Positions 946-13,647 of a stretch of DNA of 44,321 nucleotides are shown piece by piece. Where the stretch lies: positions 1 to 44,321 of the IMG/VR virus record IMGVR_UViG_3300045911_000122. One strand, 5' to 3'. The notes under the pieces were generated by a model. That model saw only the letters and a program-made list of their open reading frames with translations. It was not told the origin of the DNA and did no database searches. Positions within the stretch are counted from its first letter, which is position 1. Each line of letters begins with the position of its first letter. The DNA comes from a virus. A program made the translations under genes and the position numbers.

Positions 946-1578
946 ATGAAAAATGAACTTTTGATAGAATGCACCGGAAACAGTTTAGATACAATAGTCG
1001 AAAGCACAGATAACGAAAATAAAAACATATTTTTAAAAGGCGTTTTCATGCAGGCAGATATTGTAAATAGAAATAAAAGGAAGTATCCATTGCATGAGAT
1101 GAATAATGCTGTTTTAGATTTTTCTAAAAGAATTCAGGAATATGGTGGAGTATTTGGTGAAGCTGATCACCCAAATAGTTTAAACATCAACATGGATAGA
1201 GTATCCCATGTTATTACCGAAATGTATATGGATGGTTTTAACGCTATAGGTAAAGCTAAAGTCATTAAAGAAACACCAATGGGAAAAATTTTAAATGAGT
1301 TATTAAAAACTGGTGTTAAAATCGGCGTTTCTAGTAGAGGTACTGGACAAGTAGCTGATGATGGAACTGTATCCAATTTCAGCTTAGTAACAGTTGATGC
1401 AGTAATAACGCCATCTGCACCCGGTGCTATTCCAATGTCTGTATATGAGAGTTTAGAGCTTGACAAATCAGGCAGAAAAGTTTTAAGCTTGAGTGAAGCA
1501 TTGTTGATGGACAAATCAGCACAAAAATTCTTTACAAAAGAAATTATAAATTTTATTAAAAATATATATAATAAATGA
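946..1578 (+). CDS. 21: Prohead core scaffold protease (T4 gp21 type)
   Basis: A 210-residue protein, close to T4 gp21 in length. After scaffold assembly, gp21-family serine proteases cut the core proteins and the capsid N-terminus at (I/L)xE sites. Motifs seen: FLKGVFMQADIVNRNKRKYP at the start of the fold, GEADHP with the candidate catalytic His at 75, and GVKIGVSSRG with the candidate catalytic Ser at 129 or 130. A conserved VDAVITPSAPGA follows. It lies two nt after the putative core gene. Its TGA overlaps the ATG of the homing endonuclease remnant, which separates it from its usual partners 22 and 23, now 8 kb downstream. Confidence 0.93.
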   Translation: MKNELLIECTGNSLDTIVESTDNENKNIFLKGVFMQADIVNRNKRKYPLHEMNNAVLDFSKRIQEYGGVFGEADHPNSLNINMDRVSHVITEMYMDGFNAIGKAKVIKETPMGKILNELLKTGVKIGVSSRGTGQVADDGTVSNFSLVTVDAVITPSAPGAIPMSVYESLELDKSGRKVLSLSEALLMDKSAQKFFTKEIINFIKNIYNK

Positions 1579-2258
1579 GGAAAAAAGAACTATTAAAATA
1601 TCAAAAAAGATCCGCCGATTTGGCGGATCTTTCGTTTGTGGATAGAATAAAATATTGGAGTGTCAATAGTCCAACTAGCATGAAAAAGTTTGACACGGAA
1701 ACGTTTAATAAACTTTTAGAACTAACTAGTAATCTAGATGAAAAGGCTAGTATTAGACAAAGAATGTGGCACGTATTAAATTCAGATTATAGTTTACAAA
1801 TTTGTAAAGCTAACGGATGTGATAAAAAAGTAAAATGGAATTATGAGAAAAAAAATTACAATACATTTTGTTCAGTAAAATGTAGAGCATCTGATCCGTC
1901 GATGATTCTCATTTTACAGTCAGAACAAGCAAAACAAAAAAGAAGATCAACTAATATTAAAAAATATGGTGGAATATCACCGTCAGCTTCAAAAGAAGTC
2001 ACCAATAAGATAAAAAATACAAATTTACAAAAGTATGGCGTTTCATGTCCACTAGCAATTCCTGAAAAAAGAGATGGTTATTTAAAACAATATTCTGTAA
2101 GTAATGTTTCACAACTACAGCATATTAAAGAAAAGAAAATACAAACTTTTCAAAAACGGTATGGTGTTGATAATGCTTTTAACATTCCACAGTTAGTTAA
2201 AATATGTCGTTTTATACCAGATGACAAACAACACCACTGGTCGAGGATTTTAACCTAA
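1575..2258 (+). pseudogene. 5' part of a homing endonuclease gene interrupted by an IS607-type element
   Basis: The open frame gives 227 residues, but only those up to about 2203 (ending near PQLVKI) belong to the original gene; the rest reads into the inserted element. Seen: a Cys-type zinc finger (CKANGC and CSVKC) at about residues 78-103, then repeats of the form KYG(V/G)..P (IKKYGGISPSAS, LQKYGVSCPLAIPE, KRYGVDNAFNIPQ). These repeats are typical DNA-recognition modules of large phage free-standing endonucleases. The catalytic and C-terminal part is at 4105-5199, same strand and same motif style. The ATG overlaps the gene 21 stop. A terminator-like hairpin lies within the first 60 nt, so a start at 1681 is also possible. 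Confidence 0.85.
1606..1632 (+). terminator. Terminator-like hairpin inside the 5' end of the broken endonuclease ORF
   Basis: An 11-bp perfect stem, AAAGATCCGCC, with a GATTT loop and its exact complement. It has an A-run before it and only a short T-run after. It lies about 30 nt after the gene 21 stop, the expected place for that gene's terminator. It may be the ancestral terminator captured into the frame when the endonuclease inserted. Confidence 0.55.
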
Positions 2259-2330
2259 ATGAAACGCCATCAAAGTTTTTGATGGCGAAAAGCTTACGAT
2301 AACTGAGTTTCGTTCGCTTTTTTAAACAAT
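2204..2330 (-). ncRNA. Putative omega RNA (TnpB guide RNA scaffold) at the element's right end
   Basis: In IS605/IS607 elements the guide RNA scaffold spans the 3' end of tnpB and runs to the element boundary, with flanking DNA supplying the guide. Here the tnpB stop is about 8 nt from the inferred boundary. The last 60 nt contain structured sequence, including the perfect 10-bp hairpin at 2265-2287 and a pairing ACCAG/CTGGT. The guide would be the reverse complement of the bases just left of 2204, inside the endonuclease gene. The 5' limit is arbitrary; the RNA is predicted by analogy only. Confidence 0.4.
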
Positions 2331-3468
2331 CATACAAGTTTTTCCACGAAACATCATTGATTTCAGAGCCTAACATTTCCTTCCAACGGGTAGTTATGGC
2401 TTTCAAATCAACTTCAGGAAAAATTGTAACTGATTGATTTGTAAGGAATTGTCGCGCCCTGCGCGACAATTCCATAGCTGCTGCTATTGAATCATATTCT
2501 TCTGGCTGCATCAAGCAGCCAACAAATGATGAATAAAAAGCAGGTATTTCTTTATATTTAATTTGCATGATGTTGCATTTCTTTACCAAGTTTTGAACAA
2601 GTCGTGCTCTGTTCCATGAATTATTTACAATCCGATTGTAATTCTTTCCTTTTTTATGATCTTTTGTCTTCATATTCAGATTTTCAAAAGCTATCAATTC
2701 CACTCTGTGGTGGCGCGCAAGCGCCACAATCCTAGAATTGATCTCAGATGTCTCATGTAACTTCTTGTTTTTATTAGTAATTTTATTCAAAATAGAAAGA
2801 TCGATGATTTCTTTATGGCGAACGGTCTGGTTGTCCATGACAACCAGACCGATATAATTTGGATTCATATCAAATGACAAAATTCTATTTTTAATTGGCT
2901 TGAGTGTGCTGGCTTCAGCCAGCACAGCCTCATCAAAAATCACTATTATATCATTTCTCATGATTTCTAATGAAAAACATGCCTTTTTGTCTTCACACAA
3001 ATCCTGTAAAATTCGTAAGCTTTTTAATCTTTTATCATTTTTAAGATCAATTTCATAGATCAAGCCGCGTTGCGGCTTGAACATGATTTTGTTATTTAAT
3101 AGATCTAATGATGCCTTGCGATTGCCCCCGGCATCGCAAGAAGATCCACGTAAATAAATTGATGGATTTCGTTTTTGATTCCATGCGTCTTTATTTTCTG
3201 TCTTTTTAAATTTTAATTTGTTGAATAAATTTCGAGAACCAAACACAATTTTTTCTTTTGTTTTCAATGACTTAGCAGAATTCACAGCCATTTTAATCAT
3301 TGAAGCATCCATCAATTCAATGTTGTTCAATGACTTGCATGCTCGTTCTATTTCTGTAACAGATTTTTCTTCAATCCATCGGTTGTGCGAAAAGCGCACA
3401 ACATTGTTGAATTGTCGAAAATATTCTTCAGGAATGGAATGAGAACATGAAAGTTTATAGGAGATCAT
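2212..3468 (-). CDS. tnpB: TnpB, RNA-guided RuvC-type nuclease of the IS607-type element
   Basis: A 418-residue protein. The RuvC motifs are complete: ILSFDMNPNYIGLV with Asp200, ELIAFENLN with Glu262, and EEYDSIAAAMELSRRA with Asp326. The family's upstream CDAGGNRKASLD-like block is at about 111. The four-Cys zinc ribbon that most TnpBs carry between RuvC-II and RuvC-III is absent; FYSSFVGC leads directly to motif III. About 75 residues follow the last motif. TnpB proteins cut DNA with a guide RNA from the element's right end and help the element persist. The 3' end of this gene almost coincides with the inferred element end. It contains many short hairpins (see the repeat entry). It looks intact. 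Confidence 0.9.
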   Translation of the reverse strand: MISYKLSCSHSIPEEYFRQFNNVVRFSHNRWIEEKSVTEIERACKSLNNIELMDASMIKMAVNSAKSLKTKEKIVFGSRNLFNKLKFKKTENKDAWNQKRNPSIYLRGSSCDAGGNRKASLDLLNNKIMFKPQRGLIYEIDLKNDKRLKSLRILQDLCEDKKACFSLEIMRNDIIVIFDEAVLAEASTLKPIKNRILSFDMNPNYIGLVVMDNQTVRHKEIIDLSILNKITNKNKKLHETSEINSRIVALARHHRVELIAFENLNMKTKDHKKGKNYNRIVNNSWNRARLVQNLVKKCNIMQIKYKEIPAFYSSFVGCLMQPEEYDSIAAAMELSRRARQFLTNQSVTIFPEVDLKAITTRWKEMLGSEINDVSWKNLYDCLKKRTKLSYRKLFAIKNFDGVSFRLKSSTSGVVCHLV

Positions 3469-4036
3469 TTTTTATTTGCTCTTTAATTTTCTTGGATTTT
3501 CGAAGTCCACGGCGCATGCCGTACAAACGGCAGCAAAATGACGTGATTACAGCAACCAAATCTTTCATCAAATCAGCTTCATCCGTCTTATCTTTATGAG
3601 CTACTTCGATTGTACATCCTTGTTTTATAAGAAGTTTTTCCAAGTAATTGAAGCCGAATCGAGTTAATCGGTCTTTATTTTGAACCACTATCAATGTTGG
3701 ACTGGAGTCCAACATTGCCCAAAATGTTTTTCGGTTGTCGTTCATCCCAGAAGCTATTTCTTTGTAAACCTTGTCGATTGTATAGCCTTTGGCTATGCAA
3801 TATGCCTCAAGTCGTTCTACCTGATAATTTAATTCAAGTTTGCGCGATTGGTTGCTCACTCGCGCATAGATTACAACACGCGGCTGTGCCGCCGTGTTGT
3901 TGACTTCGACTTCATTAGGAACTATAATAGTTCCAGTGTCCATTTAATATGCGCCGGGAATTTTCCCGGAGCGAAACCAATTGAACGCTGTTCGATAAGT
4001 TACACCTTTTAATTTTGCATAATTAGATAATTTCAT
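3455..4036 (-). pseudogene. tnpA: TnpA, IS607-family serine recombinase, split by an in-frame TAA
   Basis: Reading from the ATG at 4036, the first 30 residues are a MerR-like helix-turn-helix (MKLSNYAKLKGVTYRTAFNW and FRSGKIPGAY). A TAA at 3944-3946 follows, then ATG GAC ACT GGA ACT (MDTGTIIVP). In intact relatives the linker reads GAYQ.xTGTI.VP, so a single CAA to TAA change explains the stop. The downstream 162-residue frame (3455-3943) keeps the catalytic domain: VVIYARVSNQSRK with the nucleophile Ser, and ASGMNDNRKTFW and VVQNKDRLTRFG. It overlaps tnpB by 14 nt. Either the recombinase is dead, or two pieces are made, the second from the ATG right after the stop. There is no clear ribosome-binding site for it. 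Confidence 0.85.
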
Positions 4037-4041
4037 ACATC

Positions 4042-4049
4042 TATTTATA
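4042..4049 (-). promoter_or_regulatory. T4-type late promoter match just upstream of tnpA
   Basis: TATAAATA read on the minus strand, 5 nt before the tnpA ATG at 4036. If real it would place the transcript start at or beside the start codon. In such AT-rich DNA a chance match is quite possible. Confidence 0.25.
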
Positions 4050-4104
4050 TGAATTTAAATAAAAAGTCATATTTTCTTATGACTAGTTATTACACATTGC
4101 AGAA

Positions 4105-5199
4105 ATGCGCCATACTAACAGCCAATTATTGAGAAGTGATCAAGTTAAAGAAAAAAGACGATTTACAAATATTAATCGTTATGTAGAAGGTTCGCCAAAA
4201 CAGAGACACATATCTCTAGAAAATTTAGAGTTACTTAACAACGAACAATGGTTACTAGAAAAACATTATAATAAAAAACTTAATTGTGCTATTATAGCTA
4301 AAATTATTGGAGTTGACCGCCATACTGTTGCAAATAAAATAAAACAATTTGGACATGATATTAAAACATATTATAGATCTGGACCAGAAATTGAAATTTA
4401 TAATATAATTAATAGTAAAGTAGACGCTATTCATAATACCAGAAATGTTATTGATAAGGAACTTGATATTTTTATTCCAAGTTTGAATATAGCAATAGAA
4501 TATTGCGGTTTATATTGGCATTCTGAAGAAATAGTAGGTAAAAATTATCATTATGATAAGTATTTACAATGTAAAAATGCAGGTATTAGGTTAATTCAAA
4601 TATTTGAAGATGAATGGTTAGAACGTAAAGAAATAGTTTTACAAAAAATTTTTCATATAATAAAAAAATCCACATTAGAAAGAATTTTTGCTAGAAAATG
4701 CAAAATAGTAAATGTATCATTAAATGATAAGAAAATATTTTTTGAAAAATTTCATTTACAGGGAGATGGTCCTTCTTCTATAAACTTAGGACTAGAATAT
4801 AAAAATAATTTAGTTGCAGTAGCAGGATTTATAAAGAAAAAAGATGATAGTTATATACTAAATCGTTATACTACTAGTATAAATGTTGTAGGTGGTTTTT
4901 CTAAAATTATAAAGAATATTCCATTTTATTACAAATATATTGATACTTTCGCAGATTTACGATGGTCTAACGGTGATCTGTATTTGAATAATGGATTTGT
5001 TCAGACTAGTTTTATCAAACCTGATTATTCATATTGTAGTGGAGAAAAGCGATTTCATAAATTTGGTTTTAGACATTTACATTTAAAAAATAAATTAAAA
5101 AATTATGATGAAAAATTATCAGAATATGAAAATTGTTTATTGAATAATTATTATAGAATATGGGATTCTGGTAAATTAAAATTTTCTTTATACAAATAA
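4105..5199 (+). pseudogene. 3' part of the interrupted homing endonuclease gene (PD-(D/E)XK-like catalytic and C-terminal domains)
   Basis: A 364-residue open frame. It begins with RSDQVKEKRRFTNINRY, the same repeat style as the 5' part. Next comes an HTH-like stretch (KLNCAIIAKIIGVDRHTVAN), then a Vsr/PD-(D/E)XK-like nuclease core: DKELDIFIPSLNIAIEYCGL with YWHSE, and IRLIQIFEDEW. The C-terminal half (FHLQGDG, DLRWSNGDLYLNNGF, YRIWDSGKLKF) is shared with the second endonuclease at 12043-13647. In frame, the sequence is open back to 4087, consistent with the IS607-type element joining near 4097. The fragment may still be expressed but lacks the recognition half of the protein. Confidence 0.85.
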
Positions 5200-10474: not shown

Positions 10475-11875
10475 ATGTTTGATGAATCTAAAATGTTAAC
10501 TGAAGGCTGGGCCGAGACTAAGGCAGAATTGCTCGACGGTCTAACCGGCTCACGCAGAGCCATCACCGATCAGGTGTTGGAAAACTCAAAAAATTACTTG
10601 CTAGGTGAAACTGCTGCTGCGGGATCAATCCAAGCACATGATATTGCGAATTTTAGAAAGAATCTTCTTCCTCTGATTCGTCGTATTATTCCTGGAACTA
10701 TAGCAACAGAGTTAGTTGGTGTACAACCAATGACGGGTCCAGTCTCACAAGTATTTAGCATGAAATATAAGTATGCTGATGATGCTACATACGATACAGC
10801 CCGTTCGCAGTTTGGCAATGATTATGCATATGCACCGGGAATGGAGGTTTTTGGCAATGACAATCCAATTAGACAGTTTTACTCAAGCTCCGTTGGTGTT
10901 GGCCAACCTGCCGGTGCTGGCGGTTTAGGTTATGCTGGCGCACAGCCTAATGATATTGATACTGGTGTTGCAACTGGTGATGGCTGGGGTTCTTCACAAC
11001 CATCTGATACTTATACTTCAGGAACAACATTATACGGTGAAGTTGTTGGCGGTTCTCTATATGGTGGTTCCGGCTCCCATTTGGAAGCATCTGGTGGACG
11101 TAAGCTAACTTTGGAAATCGTGTCTCAGGCTGTTGAAGCTAAGTCTCGTAAACTACAAGCTGGCTGGACTATTGAATCTATGCAAGATGCTAAGTCACAG
11201 CATAATATCAATATAGAAAGTGAAATCATAAAGGGCTTATCTGCAACTATCACTCAAGAAATAGATGCAGAAATTATTAACGACCTCTTAGCGTTAGCTG
11301 GCACAATACGTGGTTTCGACTTTTCCGCAACCGCTGGCACAACTTATGCCCCAGCATTCGTTGGCGATCGCTTTGCGAATTTAGGTGTTAAAATTGCTGA
11401 AGTTGCTAATGAAATAGCACGAAAGACACGTAAAGCTGCTGGTAACTTCGTTGTCGTCAGTCCAATGATTGTATCAGTTCTTCAAGGCGCTGCTAAGGCA
11501 GTCTTTGCACCAGCGGTTGATTTCGCCGGTAAAGCTCCAGTAAACAACTATTTTGCTGGTACTTTGAATGGTACAATTAAAGTTTACAGCTATCTGTGGA
11601 ACCAAGCTCAACCCGGAACAACCGACCCATACGGTAATGATAAGATCTTGGTCGGTCTAAAGGGTGGTAATGGTGAATTGGACGCTGGTTATTTCTACTG
11701 TCCATATGTTCCAGTCATGAGCACTGGTGTAACTATGAATCCGGTTACACATTCTCCAGTGGTTGGTTTAATGACTCGTTATGCTAAAGCTGCTTTCACT
11801 GATAGCACTACATCGCTAGGTAATTCAGCAGATTACTATGGTCGTATAAGCGTGCAGAACTTAGAGTTCCTGTAA
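10475..11875 (+). CDS. 23: Major capsid protein (T4 gp23 type)
   Basis: A 466-residue protein with the gp23 N-terminal block (LLPLIRRIIPGTIATELVGV followed by QPMTGPV), a Gly/Ser-rich insertion loop, and the C-terminal core (ARKTRKAAGNFVVVSPMIVS, ILVGLKGG, PYVPVM). LLGE at residues 43-46 followed by TAAAGS is the expected gp21 cleavage site for the delta domain. AAAGGAG lies 7 nt before the ATG. G and C content is higher and codon choice more careful than in neighbours, as expected for the most abundant virion protein. Cotranscribed with 22 and closed by a terminator. Confidence 0.97.
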   Translation: MFDESKMLTEGWAETKAELLDGLTGSRRAITDQVLENSKNYLLGETAAAGSIQAHDIANFRKNLLPLIRRIIPGTIATELVGVQPMTGPVSQVFSMKYKYADDATYDTARSQFGNDYAYAPGMEVFGNDNPIRQFYSSSVGVGQPAGAGGLGYAGAQPNDIDTGVATGDGWGSSQPSDTYTSGTTLYGEVVGGSLYGGSGSHLEASGGRKLTLEIVSQAVEAKSRKLQAGWTIESMQDAKSQHNINIESEIIKGLSATITQEIDAEIINDLLALAGTIRGFDFSATAGTTYAPAFVGDRFANLGVKIAEVANEIARKTRKAAGNFVVVSPMIVSVLQGAAKAVFAPAVDFAGKAPVNNYFAGTLNGTIKVYSYLWNQAQPGTTDPYGNDKILVGLKGGNGELDAGYFYCPYVPVMSTGVTMNPVTHSPVVGLMTRYAKAAFTDSTTSLGNSADYYGRISVQNLEFL

Positions 11876-12042: not shown

Positions 12043-13647
12043 ATGAATGAAAAATATATAAAATTTCTAAAAGAAAATATTAAATTAAAATCTTTGACCC
12101 CCTCTTCACCGTCTAATGTACACCATGAATTAAAATGTTTATTGTGTGGTAATATTTTCACTGCATATCCCAAAGCAAAAATGCAAGCATATAAAAAATC
12201 TAAAATGCCAGGGTGTCCCAAATGCACGCATTCTTATAGATATAGTCAAATTGATAAAAATAATATTAAAAAAATATCAGATCTTGGATATATTACATTT
12301 TCACCATATATCGGTTTAAAAGAAAAAATAGAAGTAAGTAATTCAAATTGTGAATGCGGAAGAAAATGGTGGACAACACCAGAAAATATATTTTCAGGGA
12401 ATGCTTTTTGTAGACCGTGCAATGATGATAAGAAAAGGAAACGATTTGATGATTTAAATAAAGAAAGATTCAGTTTATATTCCACGAATCAAAAAAATTT
12501 TACAAACTATAAAAAACTTGTCCGATATTATACCGAAAAGAATTATAAAAATTATAAAAATATAATTAATCCAAATAATTTACCTCGCGGTAGGTCTTGT
12601 AAAGAAAATGGTTATCATTTAGATCATATAGTTTCTCAATCATATTGTTGGAAAATGAATATACCTGCTAAAGTATGTGCTCATCAAAACAATTTACGTT
12701 TAATAGATGGTTTTTCGAACATTGCTAAAAATTCTAAGTCAATAAATTATTTTCCTGATATTTTTAATGAATATATCCCTTTCAGAAGAAAAGTCCAAGA
12801 ATTCGTTAATACATTAAATGAAAAGTTCCCTAATACCTTTGAAACTAATTACAAGTTAGGAGACTACACTTTTGATATAAAATATAATAATTATGTTATA
12901 TCGTTACTATTATTTGAAGAAAATAAAGAATCGTTTAATCTAAATCGCAGATTAAACATTAACATTTATAATTTTGCAAATAAGAATAATTTAATATATA
13001 TTCCAATTTTTGAACACGAATGGGACAATAGTAGAAAAATTGTATTACAAAAAATTGAACATATCATTGGCAAAAGCAATAAACCTAAAATATATGGTAG
13101 AAAAACTATTATAAGAGAGATTACTAACTCGGAAAAATCAAAATTTTTAGAAAATAATCATATTCAAGGAAATTCTGGTAGTTGTATAAATCTCGGTTGT
13201 TTTTATAACGACACATTAATATCTGTTATGACTTTTTCTAAGCCACGAATTATAATGCGTAAAAAAGTACAGAACGGTGTTTTTGAACTAGCTAGATTTG
13301 CATCTCATAATGATTTTATCGTAATTGGTACTGCATCGAAACTATTAAATTTTTTCATGAAAAATTACGATTGGAATTCTATTTATAGTTATGCTGATAA
13401 GAGATGGAGCACTGGAAATTTATATATTAAATTAGGGTTCGAAAAGTTTGAAGATTCTGATCCTAATTATTACTATTATAAAGATGGAAAAGTATATCAT
13501 CGTTTTAAATTCGCAAAACATAATATTAAAAAATTATTTCCAGATCAGTTTGATGAAACATTAACAGAATATCAAAACATGTTAAATTTAGGTTATGATA
13601 GAGTATGGGATTGTGGCAATCTTAAATTTGTTATAAACAAAACATAA
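12043..13647 (+). CDS. Free-standing homing endonuclease, HNH type with degenerate PD-(D/E)XK-like domain
   Basis: A 534-residue protein. Residues 20-130 carry three zinc-binding Cys pairs (CLLC, CPKC, CRPC and CECG), typical of phage endonuclease recognition modules. At about 188-230 is an HNH core: YHLDHIVSQSY, then HQNNLRLIDGFSNIAKNSK. The next domain aligns with the Vsr-like core of the broken endonuclease (YTFDIKYNNYVISLLLFEEN, IPIFEHEW), but the acidic and Glu-Tyr-Cys active-site residues are not kept. The C-terminal half (NNHIQGNSGSCINLG, YADKRWSTGNLYIKLGF, DRVWDCGNLKF) is shared with 4105-5199. It sits right behind the capsid terminator with no clear ribosome-binding site, as is common for homing genes in intergenic sites. 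Confidence 0.88.
   Translation: MNEKYIKFLKENIKLKSLTPSSPSNVHHELKCLLCGNIFTAYPKAKMQAYKKSKMPGCPKCTHSYRYSQIDKNNIKKISDLGYITFSPYIGLKEKIEVSNSNCECGRKWWTTPENIFSGNAFCRPCNDDKKRKRFDDLNKERFSLYSTNQKNFTNYKKLVRYYTEKNYKNYKNIINPNNLPRGRSCKENGYHLDHIVSQSYCWKMNIPAKVCAHQNNLRLIDGFSNIAKNSKSINYFPDIFNEYIPFRRKVQEFVNTLNEKFPNTFETNYKLGDYTFDIKYNNYVISLLLFEENKESFNLNRRLNINIYNFANKNNLIYIPIFEHEWDNSRKIVLQKIEHIIGKSNKPKIYGRKTIIREITNSEKSKFLENNHIQGNSGSCINLGCFYNDTLISVMTFSKPRIIMRKKVQNGVFELARFASHNDFIVIGTASKLLNFFMKNYDWNSIYSYADKRWSTGNLYIKLGFEKFEDSDPNYYYYKDGKVYHRFKFAKHNIKKLFPDQFDETLTEYQNMLNLGYDRVWDCGNLKFVINKT

What the first reader, a model, noticed from the sequence alone, without database searches (positions are those of the whole stretch)
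2265..4084. Dense array of diverse inverted repeats across the coding sequence of the IS607-type element
At least sixteen distinct short inverted repeats (stems 6-13 bp, mostly 2-5 nt loops) lie in about 1.8 kb, including perfect 13-bp stems at 2445-2473 and 2823-2851 and a 12-bp stem at 3692-3717. With roughly 4^-8 per position and a handful of loop sizes, fewer than one 8-bp stem is expected by chance; I count about nine. The arms are mostly GC islands in AT-rich DNA, use different sequences and lack T-runs. At 2445-2473 they encode residues that fit the family, so they arose in place. Possible causes: template-switch correction of quasipalindromes, selection for structured tnpB/omega RNA, or a barrier to host nucleases or transcription. 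The second endonuclease (12043-13647) shows no such array.
Basis: seen in the sequence. Interest (0 to 1): 0.88.

Follow-up and report, generated by a model that had tools for sequence, protein, structure and literature searches.

The report
Palindrome-riddled mobile element in a phage
A 1.9-kb jumping gene inside a virus of bacteria is crowded with perfect DNA hairpins in its protein-coding sequence, far more than chance, most likely because the copying enzyme repeatedly used one half of a near-palindrome as the template for the other; an unrelated element of the same family shows the same thing.

Summary
The array is real. tnpB alone has 9 perfect stems of 7 bp or more (loops 2-8 nt), against 1.0 in synonymous shuffles, and 4 of 10 bp or more against 0.013. 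GC-rich stems run at 5.7 per kb in the element and 0.26 per kb elsewhere in this T4-like phage contig. The element is an IS607-type insertion (serine TnpA plus a zinc-finger-less TnpB/Cas12f-like nuclease) that splits a homing-endonuclease gene. 137 of 210 related elements have no such hairpin, but the family has a threefold excess peaked at 3-nt loops, and an unrelated element (L135) carries a comparable array confined to its two tnpB copies. Close relatives of L135 show how such arrays evolve: stems barely vary, one 3-nt loop is exactly inverted (GAA to TTC), and one copy extended three stems by single amino-acid-changing substitutions. Stems are perfect, with no more G-U than A-C interruptions, so sense-RNA selection is not supported. 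Best reading: recurrent DNA polymerase template switching (quasipalindrome correction) creates and maintains them. Why IS607 elements are prone to it is open; repair copying during TnpB-driven homing is a candidate (homing-endonuclease genes show a mild excess). Omega-RNA could explain at most the last hairpin.

The parts
2205..4130 (-). IS607-type element, approximate limits, inserted in a homing-endonuclease gene
   Evidence: A single 575-aa homing endonuclease in L261 matches window 1656-2168 (its residues 23-211) and 4138-5184 (residues 218-569), so the gene is split here; the exact ends were not determined
2215..3468 (-). tnpB, 418 aa, RuvC triad D200/E262/D326 intact, no zinc finger
   Evidence: Invariant columns in 22 relatives; predicted fold (pLDDT 82.6) matches Cas12f (Foldseek E 1.3e-8) and TnpB 8iaz/8h1j; no Pfam or PHROGs hit
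3455..3943 (-). tnpA catalytic part, serine recombinase
   Evidence: NCBIfam transpos_IS607 157.7 bits, cut-off 110; Pfam Resolvase 2e-16
3944..4036 (-). N-terminal HTH part of tnpA, separated from 3943 by one in-frame TAA directly before an ATG
   Evidence: translation; relatives are open through this codon
2265..2287 (.). hairpin, 10-bp stem, 3-nt loop; the only one at a site where a few relatives also have (different) hairpins (tnpB residue ~398, possible omega-RNA scaffold)
2445..2473 (.). hairpin, 13-bp perfect stem, 3-nt loop, codes ELSRRARQF
2503..2521 (.). hairpin, 7-bp stem, 5-nt loop
2710..2727 (.). hairpin, 7-bp stem, 4-nt loop
2823..2851 (.). hairpin, 13-bp perfect stem, 3-nt loop
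2905..2926 (.). hairpin, 10-bp stem, 2-nt loop
3060..3080 (.). hairpin, 9-bp stem, 3-nt loop, codes FKPQRGL; an almost identical hairpin stands at the same site of the distant TnpB of L070
3116..3140 (.). imperfect hairpin with a one-base bulge
   Evidence: read from sequence
3382..3402 (.). hairpin, 8-bp stem, 5-nt loop
3692..3717 (.). hairpin in tnpA, 12-bp perfect stem, 2-nt loop, codes MLDSSPTL
3777..3801 (.). hairpin in tnpA, 11-bp stem with one mismatch, 3-nt loop
3841..3866 (.). hairpin in tnpA, 10-bp stem with one mismatch
3873..3900 (.). hairpin in tnpA, about 12 bp with a one-base bulge, in the linker between HTH and catalytic domain
3918..3934 (.). hairpin in tnpA, 7-bp stem, 3-nt loop, codes GTIIVP; the relative L090 has an 11-bp hairpin at the same motif
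3954..3969 (.). hairpin in the HTH part, 7-bp stem, 2-nt loop, codes GKIP
4065..4084 (.). AT-rich hairpin, 7 bp, in the left end upstream of tnpA

Best explanation
The hairpins are quasipalindromes completed and kept perfect by DNA polymerase template switching. Conserved peptides whose codons are nearly self-complementary (TIIV, FKPxxGL, ExxRRG) give short imperfect inverted repeats. A nascent strand folds back, or switches to the sister strand, and copies one arm from the other, which makes the arms perfect, extends them or inverts the loop. Later point mutations in an arm are erased the same way, so stems look conserved. Shown: the array, its confinement to the element, perfect Watson-Crick arms with short loops, and, in close relatives of another such element, one exact loop inversion and three stem extensions. 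Inferred: that the window's array arose by the same route, since it has no close relatives; and that IS607/TnpB elements are specially exposed because each round of TnpB-driven homing re-synthesises the element by double-strand-break repair, a kind of synthesis reported to switch templates.
For: Excess over synonymous shuffles, confined to the element. Perfect stems dominate: 19 vs 1.4 expected, against 8 vs 1.9 with one mismatch; G-U and A-C interruptions equal, 1 vs 1 in the hairpin-rich set, 13/5.0 vs 17/5.5 in the rest. Loop sizes peak at 3 nt (41 vs 7.3 expected even without the window, L135 and the last 50 tnpB codons). Codon phases of pairs are not concentrated in one class: 10, 11, 14. 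L135-type tnpB, four distinct sequences: stem cores vary at 2/154 columns, outside 98/929 (P=3e-5); loop CAAAATGG-GAA-CCATTTTG stands against CAAAATGG-TTC-CCATTTTG in L255/L256; copy L258 has 3 stem-extending private substitutions (random 0.17, P=0.0025), none shortening, all three amino-acid changing. The same 3-nt GAA/TTC spacer inversions are the published footprint of template switching in yeast genes, and short inverted repeats are reported to evolve slowly for this reason (PMC8604942). Homing-endonuclease genes show a mild excess, 16 vs 7.4, their neighbours none, 37 vs 39.9.
Against: No close relative of the window element was found, so no event was observed in it. Only one loop inversion and three extensions were seen, all in one lineage; block differences in that lineage also suggest recombination with diverged copies. 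If switching alone kept the arms equal, some double compensatory changes would be expected; none was seen among four sequences, although double-coding constraint could remove them. Template switching acts genome-wide, yet the contigs of L135 and L090 show little excess elsewhere, and T4 homing endonucleases carry no arrays (3 vs 0.5 in 8.8 kb); the element-specific cause is therefore only a hypothesis. Hairpins are far more GC-rich (56%) than the rest of the element (33%), which selection for stable stems would also give.
Confidence: 0.58

Rival explanations
1. The hairpins are selected in the mRNA: strong stems along tnpA-tnpB slow translation, protect the transcript or shape the omega-RNA precursor.
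For: Both strands fold far better than shuffles (z -11.7 sense, -9.0 antisense). In L135-type tnpB, stems are conserved at third codon positions (2/65 vs 51/311, P=0.003) while loops vary. Relatives carry a recurrent hairpin near the tnpB 3' end at residue ~388 (13 of 76 sequences), where an omega-RNA scaffold would lie.
Against: No preference for G-U over A-C interruptions; loop sizes 2-3 nt with no stable-loop motif or sense/antisense bias; positions differ between elements; most relatives lack them; extensions in L258 came at the cost of amino-acid changes.
Confidence: 0.2
2. The hairpins are selected as DNA: cruciforms or ssDNA hairpins that bind a protein, stall replication or block invading nucleases, or serve transposition.
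For: Strand symmetry, perfect Watson-Crick arms, short DNA-like loops, high GC.
Against: Arm sequences share no motif; sites are mostly not conserved; IS607 transposition by a serine recombinase is not known to need internal hairpins (own knowledge); most relatives do without.
Confidence: 0.12
3. Inserted palindromic repeats, like Rickettsia palindromic elements, or an assembly artefact.
For: None beyond the hairpins themselves.
Against: All arms differ in sequence; hairpin codons align with family residues, not insertions; L135-type arrays recur in contigs of several metagenomes.
Confidence: 0.03
4. Relics of a GC-rich ancestor: GC islands that happen to be hairpins because the rest drifted to AT.
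For: Hairpins 56% GC, rest of the element 33%, phage 30%.
Against: GC alone does not make perfect inverted repeats; shuffles with the same codons do not give them; L135-type hairpins grow in a 25% GC gene.
Confidence: 0.03

Closest known systems
Coding palindromes of Nematomorpha mitochondrial genes (PMC6649704)
   Same: Many perfect inverted repeats inside functional coding sequence, both arms coding for aligned residues, some sites shared between species, lack of imperfect repeats, template switching proposed
   Different: There arms are 15-142 bp with mean spacing 37 bp in mitochondrial housekeeping genes; here 7-13 bp arms with 2-5 nt loops, in one mobile element of a phage
Template-switch events in Saccharomyces cerevisiae genes (PMC8604942)
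   Same: Short arms (about 10 bp) with 2-5 nt spacers, arm homogenisation and GAA/TTC spacer inversion with amino-acid change
   Different: Single events spread over a genome, not an array in one element
Quasipalindrome template switching in bacteriophages (Ripley 1982, as cited in PMC8604942)
   Same: Same type of virus and the classical mechanism
   Different: Known as isolated mutation hotspots; T4 genes show no arrays here
IS607 / TnpB elements with omega-RNA (PMC10278001)
   Same: Gene content and tnpA-tnpB order; omega-RNAs rich in hairpins at the 3' end of tnpB
   Different: Known structure is at the right end, not along both coding sequences

Membership tests
IS607-family insertion sequence | Serine recombinase TnpA of the IS607 type | tested here: met
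   NF033518 157.7 bits over cut-off 110; serine in YARVSN kept
IS607-family insertion sequence | N-terminal HTH fused to the catalytic domain | tested here: inconclusive
   HTH is encoded upstream but an in-frame TAA separates it from the catalytic domain
IS607-family insertion sequence | Insertion with a GG core and no target duplication | not tested
   exact ends not determined; no empty site found
TnpB nuclease | RuvC triad and Cas12f/TnpB fold | tested here: met
   D200, E262, D326 invariant; fold matches Cas12f and TnpB
TnpB nuclease | Zinc-finger insertion in RuvC | tested here: not met
   no CxxC pair in the sequence; same in the aligned relatives; this marks a zinc-finger-less branch, and the protein is called TnpB-like for that reason
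Template-switch (quasipalindrome-correction) inverted repeats | Perfect arms in excess over imperfect ones | tested here: met
   19 vs 1.4 perfect, 8 vs 1.9 with one mismatch
Template-switch (quasipalindrome-correction) inverted repeats | Spacer inversion or arm extension between close relatives | tested here: met
   met for the L135-type array; not testable for the window element, which lacks close relatives
Conserved structured RNA (omega-RNA or regulatory mRNA) | G-U pairs tolerated and compensatory pair changes | tested here: not met
   G-U equals A-C; no compensatory double change in A3; changed pairs seen only, by inspection, in the separate hairpin near tnpB residue 388 of other elements
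Rickettsia-type palindromic elements | One repeated sequence inserted into reading frames | tested here: not met
   arms all different, no protein insertions

The most novel reading that the evidence does not exclude
IS607/TnpB elements in phages accumulate palindromes because each TnpB-driven homing cycle re-copies the element, and only the element, by double-strand-break repair synthesis prone to template switching; hairpin number would then be a molecular record of how often an element has homed.
Probability: 0.25. Interest if true: 0.8.

Novelty: new variant of a known kind. Interest (0 to 1): 0.6.

Why it matters
Coding palindromes were known at scale only in hairworm mitochondria. Here a 1.9-kb phage-borne mobile element, an unrelated second one and, weakly, the whole IS607 family show them, with footprints of template switching visible between close copies. 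If the enrichment is caused by repair copying during homing, hairpins become a readable trace of RNA-guided gene drive in the wild. If it is caused by selection, a new function of tnpB mRNA or DNA is implied. Either way, omega-RNA prediction from hairpins in tnpB genes must allow for this background.

Tried and rejected
Chance and codon usage: rejected by synonymous shuffles and codon permutation. General hairpin richness of the phage: rejected; likewise in the contigs of L135 and L090, where the excess sits in tnp genes. Rho-independent terminators: no T-runs; the window's terminator-like stems lie between genes. Omega-RNA as general cause: only the 2265-2287 hairpin sits at a site where a few relatives have hairpins; an Rfam search of the region gave nothing above a gathering threshold. 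Inserted palindromes: no insertions in protein alignments. One arm overwritten by the other: in the window the 5' arm encodes the more family-typical residues in 9 of 12 hairpins, 21 of 33 over all elements tested, not significant. Searches for closer relatives of the window element: none in IMG/VR, phage records, or GTDB contigs by TnpB. Sequence search of TnpB against PDB gave nothing; fold search did. Loop motif (GNA) test: 4 GNA, 4 TNC, no signal. Paper searches found no report of such arrays in IS607/TnpB elements, but only open-licence papers are held. A close-relative search for L070 found only itself.

Full report
WHAT IS THERE. The window is a 44-kb IMG/VR virus record from a T4-like phage (gp23 capsid at 10475-11875, prohead protease at 946-1578). 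On the minus strand at about 2205-4130 lies an IS607-type element: tnpA (serine recombinase, NCBIfam IS607 157.7 bits) overlapping tnpB. TnpB has no Pfam or PHROGs match, but 22 aligned relatives keep D200, E262 and D326 and the predicted structure (pLDDT 82.6) matches Cas12f over its length (Foldseek E 1.3e-8), Fanzor2 and ISFba1 TnpB, with the RuvC core at about residues 193-348. It lacks the zinc finger. The element interrupts a homing-endonuclease gene: one 575-aa protein in L261 matches window 1656-2168 and 4138-5184 on either side.

THE OBSERVATION. Twelve perfect stems of 7 bp or more with loops of 2-6 nt, and about four imperfect ones, lie in 1.82 kb. In tnpB 9 stems of 7 bp or more stand against 1.0 expected from 300 synonymous shuffles, and 4 of 10 bp or more against 0.013; tnpA has 2 against 0.27. 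Other genes of the window mostly lie near expectation; the second endonuclease has 3 against 2.8. Stems with four or more G/C occur at 5.7 per kb in the element and 0.26 per kb outside, and no other window of that size has more than two. Stem regions are 56% GC, the rest of the element 33%.

RELATIVES. Searches with TnpA and TnpB alignments brought 226 loci from viral and bacterial genomes. In non-redundant tnp genes the count is zero for 137 of 210 elements; the window (10, expected 0.3) and L135 (8, expected 0.4) stand out, followed by L142, L145, L009, L090, L070, L122 and L077. Without the window, L135 and the last 50 codons of tnpB the family still has 83 against 27.8 expected, and 41 of these have a 3-nt loop against 7.3 expected; viral copies 64/19.0, bacterial copies 19/8.8. 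In the L135 contig the hairpins sit in two tnpB copies (8 vs 0.17 and 7 vs 0.33), with 12 against about 8 in the rest; in the L090 contig 3 of 4 are in tnpA; the L070 and L077 contigs show a more general excess. The L135 TnpB belongs to a different, zinc-finger-bearing subfamily, so the arrays arose independently. Some sites recur: FKPxxGL carries nearly the same hairpin in the window and in the distant L070; the ExxRRG and TIIV motifs carry hairpins in two to four elements each. These peptides have nearly self-complementary codons.

HOW THEY EVOLVE. Close relatives of L135 tnpB (L254-L259, contigs of several metagenomes) give a direct view. Eleven hairpins were compared in four distinct sequences about 4-6% apart. 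Stem cores vary at 2 of 154 columns, the rest at 98 of 929 (P=3e-5); third codon positions 1/49 vs 51/311 (P=0.004); loops 7/34. One 3-nt loop is exactly inverted, GAA against TTC, between unchanged 8-bp arms, changing N to S. In copy L258, 3 of 19 private substitutions extend stems (random 0.17, P=0.0025) and none shortens one (random 3.9, P=0.015); all three change an amino acid (N to S, Y, T). No compensatory double change was seen. Extension of arm identity is the definition of a quasipalindrome mutation (PMC3820800); spacer inversion, including GAA/TTC with 10-11 bp arms, and slow evolution of short inverted repeats are reported footprints of template switching (PMC8604942); perfect stems from single events are described in PMC8794818.

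RNA OR DNA. If pairing in the mRNA were selected, G-U pairs should be tolerated better than A-C. They are not: 1 vs 1 in the hairpin-rich set, 13 (expected 5.0) vs 17 (5.5) in the rest (a second count agrees). Perfect stems dominate, the 'binary' pattern that the hairworm study took as a sign of arm conversion (PMC6649704). Loops show no stable-loop motif and no strand bias. Both strands fold strongly. Only the hairpin at 2265-2287 falls at a site where a few relatives have other hairpins; the recurrent hairpin near tnpB residue 388 in relatives, with changed pairs, is probably omega-RNA scaffold and a separate matter.

MECHANISM. The best-supported reading is recurrent polymerase template switching at quasipalindromic coding motifs, which creates, extends and maintains perfect short hairpins. 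This is shown for the L135 lineage by footprints and inferred for the window, which has no close relatives. The open question is why these elements. TnpB acts as an RNA-guided gene drive that cuts element-free copies (PMC11870625 for IS200/605), so the element may be re-synthesised by repair in each round; gene-conversion synthesis is reported to involve template switches (cited in PMC9262586). A prediction is that other homing genes show it: 72 homing-endonuclease genes have 16 vs 7.4 (8 bp or more: 9 vs 2.8), their neighbours 37 vs 39.9, and T4 homing endonucleases 3 vs 0.5. This is in the right direction but far from arrays, so the step stays a hypothesis. R-loops or strong transcription (PMC3820800) are alternatives.

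LIMITS. Synonymous shuffles ignore context across codons, but control genes behave. The window element was seen in one contig only. The hairpin-rich set was picked for its hairpins, so its excess is not an unbiased estimate. The decisive comparisons rest on one lineage. Functional selection cannot be excluded: conserved third positions in stems fit it as well as repeated correction under double coding.

Noticed in passing
window 3941-3946: tnpA is split by a single in-frame TAA between HTH and catalytic domain, directly followed by an ATG; relatives are open there. Could be stop-restart, a nonsense mutation or a sequence error.
   Followed up: partly
window 1575-2258 and 4105-5199: A homing-endonuclease gene interrupted by the IS607 element: one mobile gene nested in another.
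   Followed up: yes
L008, L022, L023, L029, L036, L038, L057, L058, L059, L064, L077, L081, L087 near tnpB residue 388: A recurrent hairpin at KNSKxxYRVS near the 3' end of zinc-finger-less tnpB genes with different paired sequences (13 of 76), probably part of the omega-RNA scaffold.
   Followed up: partly
L254-L259 (alignment A3): Several serine codons switch between TCN and AGY, and block differences occur, among tnpB copies only about 5% apart, which suggests recombination with diverged copies.
   Followed up: no
3-nt-loop hairpins of all tnp genes: The base 5' of the loop is A or C in 39 of 53 hairpins (closing pairs A-T or C-G rather than T-A or G-C).
   Followed up: no
L005, L006 and Lak phage records: Lak phages carry zinc-finger-less TnpB genes of the same branch that read through with genetic code 15.
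   Followed up: no
window 12043-13647: The second homing endonuclease has a weak Mom-family match at residues 356-497 (28.2 bits, cut-off 27.1).
   Followed up: no
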